Shown here: one piece after another, positions 1,258 to 3,881 of the stretch
How positions within the stretch are numbered: position 1 is the stretch's first letter
How the letters are laid out: every line of letters starts with the position of its first letter
Position numbers and translations under genes: made by a program
Source of the DNA: Nitrososphaerota archaeon
GTDB taxonomy: Archaea; Thermoproteota; Nitrososphaeria; Nitrososphaerales; CADDZS01
Direction of reading: 5' to 3'
Length of the DNA stretch: 14,967 bases
Assembly: GCA_027886785.1 (NCBI GenBank)
Contig: JAPCJV010000009.1
Coordinates: 1-14,967, forward strand
Notes under the pieces: model-generated
Told to the model about the DNA's origin: nothing
Seen by the model: only the letters and a program-made list of their open reading frames with translations
The model's database searches: none

Positions 1258-1391
1258 TGGGCCAGGCCGGATTTGAACCGACGACCCACACCGTGTAAGG
1301 GTATGACCGCAATCTTGAGAAATTGCTGTTGTCCTAACCAGGTTGTCCGAGCGTGAGCATGCTCCTCATGGAATCCCTAGACGACTGGCCC
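1258..1391 (-). tRNA. tRNA-Val (anticodon UAC) with two non-canonical introns
   Basis: On the minus strand GGGCCAG (1391-1385) pairs with CTGGCCC (1265-1259), followed by discriminator A (1258); CCA is not encoded. The T arm is GTCGG-TTCAAAT-CCGGC. The anticodon arm is ATACC-CTTACAC-GGTGT, giving anticodon TAC with a 7-base loop and no intron at the usual 37/38 site. The D arm is only complete after removing about 34 bases from the D loop (about 1376-1343), which restores GTCTAG-CCTGGTTAGGAC. A second insert of about 25 bases (about 1330-1305) sits between the D arm and the anticodon stem. The mature length would be 75. Exact splice sites are uncertain by a base or two. Confidence 0.88.
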
Positions 1392-1456: not shown

Positions 1457-1777
1457 CTAGATTTTCGTTGAATCCAAGCTTTCAATATAGTTTCTAACAG
1501 AAATCAATGAAGATCGAATCTGAGGGTCGTTGTTGGTCTTTACTCCAATCGTCAACCTGTTGACATAAGTTTGTAAAATCTTCACGTCAACGTTCGATTC
1601 TTTCGGGCCTCTCGCAAGCTGCCCAATCCTGTGATTCAACCGATTGATTTGCTGAAGTGCGAGGATCCGGGATTCGTCCTTGGAGATCGCACTCGGAGGA
1701 TCTTTTGATACAAGTGGCACCAGATATTTCTCTACTTGCGCAAAAATATCCTTTAGACTGGAGTCCATTCTTTCCAT
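1457..1777 (-). CDS. hypothetical helical protein in the MetRS gene cluster
   Basis: I do not recognise this 106-residue protein. It is soluble and mostly helical, rich in Leu, Ile, Ser and charged residues, with no Cys, signal peptide or membrane segment. Its ATG (1777-1775) directly abuts the TAG of the MetRS-beta-type gene (1780-1778), with no bases between, so the two are almost surely co-transcribed and translationally coupled. An in-frame second ATG lies three codons in. The context suggests a job connected with methionyl-tRNA synthesis or translation, but that is inference from position only. It ends shortly before the tRNA-Val promoter. Confidence 0.72.
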   Translation of the reverse strand: MERMDSSLKDIFAQVEKYLVPLVSKDPPSAISKDESRILALQQINRLNHRIGQLARGPKESNVDVKILQTYVNRLTIGVKTNNDPQIRSSLISVRNYIESLDSTKI

Positions 1778-2201: not shown

Positions 2202-3881
2202 TTAGGAAGTGCGAATCGTTTCAAGCTTCTCCTTAAGCTCTTCAGAATTGACTTTGGCAAAAATGGGCTGCACATCTCGGGTCACTATGGGAAGATCCTC
2301 CTCCAAAGATGTTTCGTCCCACATAGGAATTCCTTTGGTATTCTTGAAAATTCCTGCCTGATGCGTGATCTTTAGAGTGGTTTCTGGTATGATTGGATTG
2401 AGCTCTATAGATAGGATCTTCAACGCAGACAGGGCCACGTACAAGATCTGCATAGCCTTCATTCTATCTTGCTTGACTACTTTCCACGGTTCGGTAGAAC
2501 TGAGAAATTTGTTCGCATCGTACCCCTGTTCTACGATCGTTCTGCAGGCCAGCTGCAATTCAACCTTCTCGAATAGCTCCCTGACTACGCCATGTCTTTC
2601 TTGAGCCCTGCGTATGATTTTAGAATATTCCTCTGGAAGATCTTCCATTCGCAGCTCAAAATTGTTATTCGCAAATCTGGATACTCCGACAAGGGTTCGG
2701 TTAACAAAATTCCCGATAGTATCGTTCAGGTCGTTATTCACCTTTTCCGAAAAAGATTCCCATCCAAAATTCACATCGCTCGCTTCGGGCCTCAAAGAAA
2801 TTAGGGCAAACCTCCAGTAATCGGCAGGAAGCAATGCTAGCGCCTCGTCAGTCCAGATGCCCACTCTTCTGCTTTTGGAAAATTTCTGTCCCTCGAAATT
2901 CAGAAACTCTGTCGAACTGATCAGGTTTGGTTCGTTGTAATCCCGACCGGAAGCTTTCAGGAGAGAGGGGAGGATAATGGCGTGAAAGGGTATGTTGTCC
3001 TTGCCGATGAAAAAGGAGGTCTTCGTTTCATGGTTCAACCAAAATTCTTTCCACCTTTCCGGTTCGCCTCTTTTCTCGAAATACTCTATTACAGCAGATA
3101 CGTACCCGAGGACCGCGTCCATCCAGACATAGATTGTTTTGTCCTCTGCTCCCGGGAAGGGCGCCTTTATCCCCCATTTCGAATCTCTAGTTATGGATCG
3201 AGGCCGCAATCCGTCTTTTATCCAACCTCGGCAAAAATTGATTACATTCGTCGAGAGCTCCGCTCTCGATAGAAAGTCAGAAATGTAGTCGGACATTTTA
3301 GGAAGATCGAAAAACCACTGCTTTGTTTCCCTTAACTCGGTTCGGTGATGACAGATGACGCAATACGCGTCAATGAGCTTTTCTGCGTCAAGAGGTCTTC
3401 CGCAATTGTCGCACTGGTCCCCTCTGGCTCGATCGTACCCGCAGAACGGACACTTGCCCTCTACGAACCGATCCGGCAAGAAACGCTGGTCGTTCGGGCA
3501 ATAGTGAATGCGCTCGATCTGAGTGAAGATGTAGCTGTCGTTGTTGTAGATTTCGGTGTACAGCTCTCGCGTGAATTTCCAGTGGGCTTCAGAATCGGTC
3601 CTTGTGTAATTATCGTATGAAATGTTCCACTGTCTGAAAATCTCGGAAATTCGTCGGTGGTTTTCGTCAGCCAGTTGCTTAACCGGAATTTTTCTCTTCA
3701 GAGCTTCTACTTCGAGTGGAGTTCCGTGCTCATCTGACCCAGACACAAACACAACTTCGTTTCCCACAAGTCGGTTGAATCTCGCAGAAACGTCCGCCGA
3801 CAAGACGGAGCCGATCATATTACCGAGATGTGGAATGTCCGAGGAGTACGGCCATGCAGATGTGACGACCCATCTTGTCAA
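2202..3881 (-). CDS. metG: methionine-tRNA ligase (MetRS)
   Basis: MetRS charges tRNA-Met with methionine for initiation and elongation. The Rossmann catalytic domain shows HLGN (residues 18-21, class I HIGH motif) and KFSKS (333-337, KMSKS loop). Between them the zinc insert has Cys at 128, 144, 147, 157, 160, 174 and 177, fitting two metal-binding knuckles. An anticodon-binding helical domain follows. At 559 residues it lacks the fused C-terminal OB domain, which is encoded separately downstream. The start is TTG (3881-3879): an in-frame TAA directly precedes it, and GGAGATG (3894-3888) sits six bases upstream. That ribosome site overlaps ATGAAATAA, a two-codon frame ending right at the start codon. 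Confidence 0.97.
   Translation of the reverse strand: MTRWVVTSAWPYSSDIPHLGNMIGSVLSADVSARFNRLVGNEVVFVSGSDEHGTPLEVEALKRKIPVKQLADENHRRISEIFRQWNISYDNYTRTDSEAHWKFTRELYTEIYNNDSYIFTQIERIHYCPNDQRFLPDRFVEGKCPFCGYDRARGDQCDNCGRPLDAEKLIDAYCVICHHRTELRETKQWFFDLPKMSDYISDFLSRAELSTNVINFCRGWIKDGLRPRSITRDSKWGIKAPFPGAEDKTIYVWMDAVLGYVSAVIEYFEKRGEPERWKEFWLNHETKTSFFIGKDNIPFHAIILPSLLKASGRDYNEPNLISSTEFLNFEGQKFSKSRRVGIWTDEALALLPADYWRFALISLRPEASDVNFGWESFSEKVNNDLNDTIGNFVNRTLVGVSRFANNNFELRMEDLPEEYSKIIRRAQERHGVVRELFEKVELQLACRTIVEQGYDANKFLSSTEPWKVVKQDRMKAMQILYVALSALKILSIELNPIIPETTLKITHQAGIFKNTKGIPMWDETSLEEDLPIVTRDVQPIFAKVNSEELKEKLETIRTS

What the first reader, a model, noticed from the sequence alone, without database searches (positions are those of the whole stretch)
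1258..1391. tRNA-Val(UAC) with two introns, both away from the canonical site
The acceptor, T and anticodon arms pair perfectly around anticodon TAC with no insert at 37/38. A full D arm needs removal of about 34 bases from the D loop and about 25 bases between the D arm and the anticodon stem. Non-canonical archaeal tRNA introns are established knowledge (cut by splicing endonuclease at bulge-helix-bulge motifs), but two in one tRNA, both upstream of the anticodon, is uncommon and needs the broad-specificity enzyme type.
Basis: partly seen in the sequence, partly recalled or inferred. Interest (0 to 1): 0.72.

Follow-up and report, generated by a model that had tools for sequence, protein, structure and literature searches.

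The report
Valine tRNA gene with two introns
A valine transfer-RNA gene of an uncultured archaeon is interrupted by two short inserts that are most likely spliced out, one in the D loop and one in the anticodon stem; relatives show these sites filled or empty, which makes it a sound new example of a known kind of archaeal intron.

Summary
On the minus strand (1391 to 1258) lies a 75-nt tRNA-Val(UAC) in three exons. Intron 1 (34 nt, 1343-1376) sits in the D loop between G15 and C16. Intron 2 (25 nt, 1303-1327) sits inside the anticodon stem between C28 and A29, not between D arm and anticodon stem. Nothing is inserted at 37/38. Seven orthologues were found in the nine held genomes of one Nitrososphaerales family. 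Six carry inserts at both sites; two of those six also have one at 37/38. The seventh lacks both inserts and keeps only the 37/38 one, so it shows the joined exons. Exons are identical in 6 of 7 (one change in the other), while introns are 44-71% identical. Both introns fit relaxed bulge-helix-bulge motifs cut at the inferred junctions, conserved in register over 10 sequences, though these are not the lowest-energy folds. Relatives encode a two-subunit splicing endonuclease with the lysine linked to broad specificity. No second tRNA-Val(UAC) was seen in them. Multi-intron tRNAs, also in Thaumarchaeota, are published, so this is a new member of a known kind. Splicing itself is inferred, not shown.

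The parts
1377..1391 (-). 5' exon of tRNA-Val(UAC), positions 1-15 (acceptor 5' strand, 8-9, D-stem 5' strand, A14 G15)
   Evidence: identical in 8 of 8 sequences (window and 7 relatives); coordinates
1343..1376 (-). intron 1, 34 nt, D loop, between G15 and C16
   Evidence: absent in L014, present with other sequence in 6 relatives
1379..1382 (-). helix H of motif 1, 5' strand GUCU (D-stem 10-13); pairs with 1345-1348 (GGAC) in intron 1
   Evidence: 4 of 4 pairs in window; 32 of 40 over 10 sequences, next best register 21; not in the minimum-energy fold
1349..1375 (-). intron-internal helix h' of motif 1 (1372-1375 with 1349-1352); 3 of 4 pairs in window
   Evidence: 36 of 40 over 10 sequences, next best register 21
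1328..1342 (-). middle exon, positions 16-28 (rest of D arm, 26, A27, C28)
   Evidence: identical in 8 of 8
1303..1327 (-). intron 2, 25 nt, anticodon stem, between C28 and A29
   Evidence: absent in L014, present with other sequence in 6 relatives
1330..1333 (-). helix H of motif 2, 5' strand GACA (positions 23-26); pairs with 1305-1308 (GGUC, one A-G mismatch) in intron 2
   Evidence: 3 of 4 in window; 38 of 40 over 10 sequences, next best register 22
1309..1326 (-). intron-internal helix h' of motif 2 (GCAA 1323-1326 with UUGC 1309-1312, longer in the fold)
   Evidence: 4 of 4 in window; 37 of 40 over 10 sequences, next best register 25; also in the fold
1258..1302 (-). 3' exon, positions 29-73 (anticodon arm, variable loop, T arm, acceptor 3' strand, A73; no CCA encoded)
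   Evidence: identical in 7 of 8; L001 differs at one base
1295..1297 (-). anticodon UAC (34-36)
   Evidence: ARAGORN on the joined exons: tRNA-Val(tac)
1457..1777 (-). 106-aa ORF just upstream of the tRNA, conserved neighbour without a Pfam match
   Evidence: tblastn hit in 7 of 7 family loci; no Pfam family at E 0.001
2202..3881 (-). methionyl-tRNA synthetase (catalytic ORF), synteny anchor
   Evidence: Pfam PF09334; same contig and strand as the tRNA in 7 of 7

Best explanation
This is the working tRNA-Val(UAC) gene of an archaeon in a Nitrososphaerales family in whose nine held genomes no amoA was found. It is transcribed as a precursor that holds this 134-nt stretch. In the precursor the 5' strand of the D stem (GUCU) pairs with a decoy GGAC near the 3' end of intron 1, and nucleotides 23-26 (GACA) pair with GGUC in intron 2. 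Each pairing plus an intron-internal hairpin makes a relaxed bulge-helix-bulge (HBh') motif. An (alpha beta)2 splicing endonuclease cuts between G15 and intron 1, intron 1 and C16, C28 and intron 2, and intron 2 and A29. A ligase joins the exons, and the freed D-stem and anticodon-stem strands then pair with their proper partners. Shown: the gene, the exon junctions by comparison, conservation of the motifs, and the enzyme subunits in relatives. Inferred: transcription, cleavage, ligation and their order.
For: Exon/intron structure: 7 orthologues in 9 family genomes, same neighbours in 7 of 7. Exons are identical in 6 of 7 with one substitution in the other; introns are 44-71% identical to the window's, flanks 52-62%. 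L014 (G067) lacks both inserts and gives the joined sequence; Rfam scores it as a tRNA (50 bits). Motifs: at the predicted register H is 32/40 and h' 36/40 for intron 1, and 38/40 and 37/40 for intron 2, against at most 21, 21, 22 and 25 at ten other registers. Dealing the h' halves out among sequences reaches the observed sum in 13 and 102 of 20000 permutations. Two further D-loop introns (L138, L140) fit with H 3/4 and h' 4/4 each. Shuffled window introns reach the observed sum in 1756 and 717 of 200000. Enzyme: PF01974 in 8 of 9 genomes, two paralogues in 7. The 8 alpha subunits keep Tyr, His and Lys and the loop lysine, with Lys or Arg two residues on; the role of that lysine is from PMC6379350 and PMC12397907 (passages).
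Against: The minimum-energy folds do not support the motifs well. All predicted pairs of motif 1 are in that fold in 0 of 10 sequences (window 0 of 6 pairs), and of motif 2 in 1 of 10 (window 5 of 8). Forcing motif 1 costs 6.7 kcal/mol in the window (1.2-7.5 over the ten), motif 2 costs 2.3 (0-4.7). The minimum-energy fold of the joined 75-nt RNA has acceptor, anticodon and T stems but not the D stem. Three local stretches fold no better than shuffles. In the window, motif 1 has 3 of 4 h' pairs and motif 2 an A-G mismatch in H; 8 of 10 sequences have only 3 of 4 pairs in H of motif 1. By eye no outer helix h was found for motif 2. The motif rule was read off these sequences by eye before it was counted on them, and some are close kin, so the counts are not independent. 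The window's own genome and endonuclease were not available. There is no RNA evidence.
Confidence: 0.9

Rival explanations
1. Decayed or silent tRNA pseudogene with two chance insertions; another gene supplies tRNA-Val(UAC).
For: ARAGORN and Rfam do not recognise the gene, and the window's own genome could not be searched.
Against: Exons are unchanged or change at one base across seven relatives whose MetRS is 64-83% identical to the window's (the 64% is an 80-residue piece). Inserts sit at the same two sites in six relatives, and the locus is syntenic in 7 of 7. No second Val(UAC) by pattern in the nine family genomes; the 21 other matches do not read as Val(UAC) by eye.
Confidence: 0.03
2. 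The inserts are not spliced; the tRNA works with an enlarged D loop and an extra arm between D and anticodon stems.
For: The minimum-energy fold keeps acceptor, T and an anticodon-like arm with the inserts in place.
Against: The anticodon stem formed with the second insert left in place mispairs in 5 of 6 relatives, while ACACC:GGUGU across the junction is perfect; L014 lacks both inserts. Insert lengths vary from 20 to 45 and 16 to 35 nt in the Val(UAC) genes that have them.
Confidence: 0.02
3. Two real introns, but intron 1 is cut at slightly different bonds or from a different fold (the CUAGG:CCUGG helix of the minimum-energy fold), so the D loop of the mature tRNA differs by a nucleotide or two.
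For: The CUAGG:CCUGG helix is in the minimum-energy fold of the window, and motif 1 forced costs 6.7 kcal/mol.
Against: The joined form L014 gives an exon sequence that fits only this pair of cuts in the window (by eye); the 15/16 register pairs best over the ten sequences, and two further introns agree.
Confidence: 0.05

Closest known systems
Multi-intron tRNA genes of Thermoproteales (tRNA-Pro(UGG) of Pyrobaculum islandicum: 25/26, 56/57 and a canonical intron)
   Same: Several introns in one tRNA, some outside 37/38, at bulge-helix-bulge or relaxed motifs (PMC4090602, passages; PMC4390854, passages)
   Different: Other phylum, other isotype, other sites; here both introns lie before the anticodon and the 37/38 site is empty in the window
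Non-canonical tRNA introns of Thaumarchaeota recorded with tRNAscan-SE 2.0 (107 non-canonical introns, own covariance model; multiple introns noted)
   Same: Same phylum in the older naming and same kind; some tRNA genes there carry several non-canonical introns (PMC8450103, passages)
   Different: The passages seen do not name tRNA-Val, the 15/16 or 28/29 sites or this family; the paper's supplementary tables could not be read here, so this very arrangement may be listed there
D-arm and anticodon-stem introns of Aeropyrum pernix and Sulfolobus tokodaii, cleaved by recombinant EndA
   Same: Intron in D arm or anticodon stem, borders at a bulge-helix-bulge-like structure, shown by cDNA and by enzyme (PMC4307357, passages)
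   Different: The passages describe one such intron for each of those tRNAs, of other isotypes; here two in one gene and no experiment
tRNA-Thr(GGU) of Caldiarchaeum subterraneum (introns 24/25 and 45/46, with a one-intron form)
   Same: Two-intron tRNA with a relative that lacks one intron (PMC3293823, passages)
   Different: Other isotype, other sites; a mobile element is implicated there, which was not looked for specially here

Membership tests
Archaeal bulge-helix-bulge tRNA introns (non-canonical) | Removal restores a normal tRNA | tested here: met
   75-nt joined exons called tRNA-Val(tac) by ARAGORN; the same exons uninterrupted at both sites in L014
Archaeal bulge-helix-bulge tRNA introns (non-canonical) | Splice sites in 3-nt bulges beside a 4-bp helix, cut between 2nd and 3rd bulge residues (strict or relaxed hBH / HBh') | tested here: met
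   HBh' at both junctions; register counts 32/40, 36/40, 38/40, 37/40. Caveats: motif 1 is not in the minimum-energy fold (0 of 10), motif 2 wholly in 1 of 10; one mismatch in each motif of the window
Archaeal bulge-helix-bulge tRNA introns (non-canonical) | Strict hBHBh' motif with outer helix h | tested here: not met
   Only relaxed HBh' seen: by eye no outer helix for intron 2, and a 2x3 internal loop before a CCAG:CUGG helix for intron 1 in the window (sequence)
Archaeal bulge-helix-bulge tRNA introns (non-canonical) | Host has an endonuclease of broad specificity ((alpha beta)2 or epsilon2) | tested here: inconclusive
   Met in relatives only: alpha and beta paralogues in 7 of 9 genomes, loop lysine in 8 of 8 alphas; the window's genome is not held, and assembly and specificity of the enzyme are inferred
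Archaeal bulge-helix-bulge tRNA introns (non-canonical) | Spliced RNA or excised intron observed | not testable with these tools
   no RNA data
Self-splicing group I / group II introns | Catalytic intron core, hundreds of nt (recalled), Rfam match | tested here: not met
   34 and 25 nt; no Rfam family at gathering score in the window, none of the intron families up to E 10 around the gene
Split or permuted tRNA genes | tRNA parts encoded apart or in swapped order | tested here: not met
   all parts contiguous and in order, 1391 to 1258

The most novel reading that the evidence does not exclude
The pair of introns is an old, mobile unit of valine tRNAs in Nitrososphaerales lineages without detected amoA. 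The D-loop intron works as a D-stem decoy that holds the tRNA misfolded until it is cut. The pair passed between Val(UAC) and Val(GAC) genes: lineage G048/G056/G063 has both inserts in Val(GAC), while in the two of these genomes where Val(UAC) was found it has only the D-loop one. Within one family the gene has been both filled up to three introns and cleanly emptied of two.
Probability: 0.25. Interest if true: 0.5.

Novelty: new member of a known kind. Interest (0 to 1): 0.32.

Why it matters
It gives a natural series in one syntenic gene: three introns, two, or only the canonical one, with nearly identical exons. That makes gain and loss of tRNA introns, and possible passage between isoacceptors, testable outside Thermoproteales, the group that the reviews read here treat as richest in them. 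It also shows that ARAGORN and Rfam's tRNA model miss such a gene, or mislabel it (as Leu), which matters for tRNA counts of archaeal genomes; tRNAscan-SE 2.0, which has a Thaumarchaeota intron model, was not run.

Tried and rejected

Bulge-helix-bulge with the 4-bp helix strand inside the intron at the 5' site: my first hand trial used the wrong handedness and gave no conserved pairing. The review text (PMC4090602) says that the anticodon side, that is the 5' exon, pairs with the intron, and with that orientation both introns fit.

Minimum-energy folding: three local stretches uninformative, whole precursors mostly without the motifs. ARAGORN and Rfam on the window: nothing; the three matches are far below gathering scores.

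Second Val(UAC) copy: searched by DNA and by pattern in nine family genomes, none seen. The pattern gave 27 matches in 8 of 9 genomes (7 for the reversed control); 6 are the Val(UAC) gene, the other 21 were judged by eye not to be Val(UAC). G001's copy is too long for the pattern and came from the DNA search. G053's contig ends before the locus, and in G027 neither MetRS nor the gene was found. A diverged second copy with other T-arm letters would be missed.

Spread: an exact pattern for the D-loop insert plus the start of intron 2 matched 6 of 400 sampled genomes of the class. It demands exact exon letters and limits intron length; it missed G012, which has both introns but a 45-nt intron 1.

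Print search: seven paper searches. None of the passages seen names this gene or the 15/16 plus 28/29 pair, but two base papers (PMC1852824, PMC1370505) are not held and supplements could not be read, so I do not claim that it is unpublished.

Full report
What is there. The window's minus strand from 1391 to 1258 reads GGGCCAG...CTGGCCCA. ARAGORN finds no tRNA in the window and Rfam nothing at gathering score. Taking out 34 nt (1343-1376) and 25 nt (1303-1327) leaves 75 nt that ARAGORN calls tRNA-Val(tac); with introns allowed it misreads the intact gene as tRNA-Leu(caa). No CCA is encoded. tRNA position numbers here follow the usual scheme, from memory.

Relatives. The window's own genome is not held. 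A scan of genome contigs with the window's methionyl-tRNA synthetase gave 5 loci; the best is a Nitrososphaerales MAG (L001, 83% identity). Its contig holds the orthologous tRNA with three inserts. A DNA search of 151 genomes of the order matched 30; those matches outside the family that I read were other tRNAs. Reading the loci and searching all 9 held genomes of the family gave 7 orthologues: L001, L014, L015, L016, L017, L018, L019. In the other two genomes the locus is beyond a contig end or not found. The tRNA lies on the same contig and strand downstream of MetRS in 7 of 7, with the 106-aa ORF and the tRNA_bind ORF between them in 7 of 7. amoA was found in 0 of 9 family genomes, in 0 of 3 of another lineage and in 2 of 2 genomes included as likely positives; how complete the genomes are is not told.

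Filled and empty sites. Six of seven relatives have inserts at both sites. L001 and L015 have a third at 37/38. L014 has neither of the first two and only the 37/38 one, so it spells out the joined exons GTCTAG-CCTGGTTAGGACAAC-ACCCTTAC. The exons equal the window's in 6 of 7 relatives; L001 differs at one base. Intron 1 ranges over 20-45 nt and is 44-71% identical to the window's; intron 2 over 16-35 nt and 54-65%; the 60-nt flanks are 52-62% (downstream not counted for L015). Exons under selection with free introns are what a working spliced gene shows, not decay.

Order of events. In the MetRS tree the window is sister to G001 (100/99), with G012 next (88/88). In the EndA tree G067, the genome of L014, groups with G001 and G027 (100/99). 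The simplest reading is that both non-canonical introns are old in the family and were lost cleanly in G067, and that the window lost a canonical intron that G001, G012 and G067 keep. This rests on small trees; G067 was left out of the MetRS tree because only its C-terminal piece matched, and G012 is missing from the EndA tree.

Splice motifs. With the published orientation (5' exon strand in the central helix, PMC4090602; cuts between the second and third bulge residues, PMC4307357; passages seen), intron 1 gives H = GUCU (D-stem 10-13) with GGAC, bulge AG^G, and bulge AA^C. Intron 2 gives H = GACA (23-26) with GGUC, bulge AC^A, and bulge AU^A. Over 10 sequences (7 Val(UAC) including the window, plus 3 Val(GAC) of another lineage), the number of pairs at this register is 32 and 36 of 40 (H and h', intron 1) and 38 and 37 of 40 (intron 2). 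The best other register within five bases gives 21, 21, 22 and 25. Dealing h' halves out anew reaches the real sum in 13 and 102 of 20000 trials. The sequences are related and the rule was first read from them, so these numbers overstate independence. Two Val(UAC) genes of the other lineage, L138 and L140, not used before, fit with H 3 of 4 and h' 4 of 4 each. Against: motif 1 is wholly in the minimum-energy fold of 0 of 10 sequences and motif 2 of 1 of 10; forcing them costs 1.2-7.5 and 0-4.7 kcal/mol (window 6.7 and 2.3), and the minimum-energy fold of the joined RNA lacks the D stem. Three local folds are no better than shuffles. Relaxed motifs held by the enzyme may well be of this sort, but that is inference.

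Enzyme. PF01974 matches 8 of 9 family genomes, with two paralogues in 7. The 8 alpha sequences keep Tyr, His and Lys of the active site (which residues these are is recalled) and the sequence GKPxGxxKP[KR]. The copy of L001's genome aligns without gaps in that loop to 3p1z_B, which I recall as Aeropyrum pernix EndA; counting along the printed alignment puts its lysine at 44 and an arginine at 46. That loop lysine is reported as needed for broad specificity, and K44 with a positive residue at 46 as conserved (PMC6379350, PMC12397907, passages). The beta sequences shown (5 of 7) lack the His by eye, and the one searched matches solved endonucleases. That they form an (alpha beta)2 enzyme is inference.

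Another lineage. G048, G056 and G063 have tRNA-Val(GAC) with inserts at the D-loop site and in the anticodon stem. In G056 and G063 the Val(UAC) gene has the D-loop insert only; in G048 it was not found by the pattern. The family's own Val(GAC) genes, seen in 7 of 9 genomes, have only an insert beside the anticodon. The D-loop intron is thus older than the family or has moved; which of the two is not settled. An exact pattern for the arrangement matched 6 of 400 sampled genomes of the class and missed at least one carrier, G012.

Known or new. Up to three introns per archaeal tRNA, and non-canonical introns in Thaumarchaeota with a dedicated model, are in print (PMC8450103, passages). The site list printed in PMC4090602 (20/21, 22/23, 25/26, 29/30, 30/31, 45/46, 53/54, 56/57, 59/60, 'etc.', and 3/4) does not name 15/16 or 28/29, but it is open-ended. 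I file this as a new member of a known kind.

Noticed in passing
L056, L057, L062-L065, L069 (also within L052, L053): tRNA-Ile(GAU) of the same family carries a long D-loop insert and an insert beside the anticodon (by eye), so multi-intron tRNAs may be common in this family.
   Followed up: no
window 1457-1777 (-): 106-aa ORF without a Pfam match, conserved (39-63% identity) between the tRNA_bind ORF and tRNA-Val in 7 of 7 family loci.
   Followed up: partly
L020, L027, L030 and L138, L140: Val(GAC) in three genomes of another lineage has inserts at the D-loop site and in the anticodon stem, while Val(UAC) of two of them has only the D-loop insert.
   Followed up: partly
L058, L050 (G027), L068 (G053), L070 (G045): Other tRNA-like genes with several long inserts in D and anticodon arms (by eye); isotypes not assigned.
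   Followed up: no
L051 and L060 (G060): The same Val(GAC) gene appears on two contigs of one genome, one at a contig end, probably an assembly duplicate.
   Followed up: no
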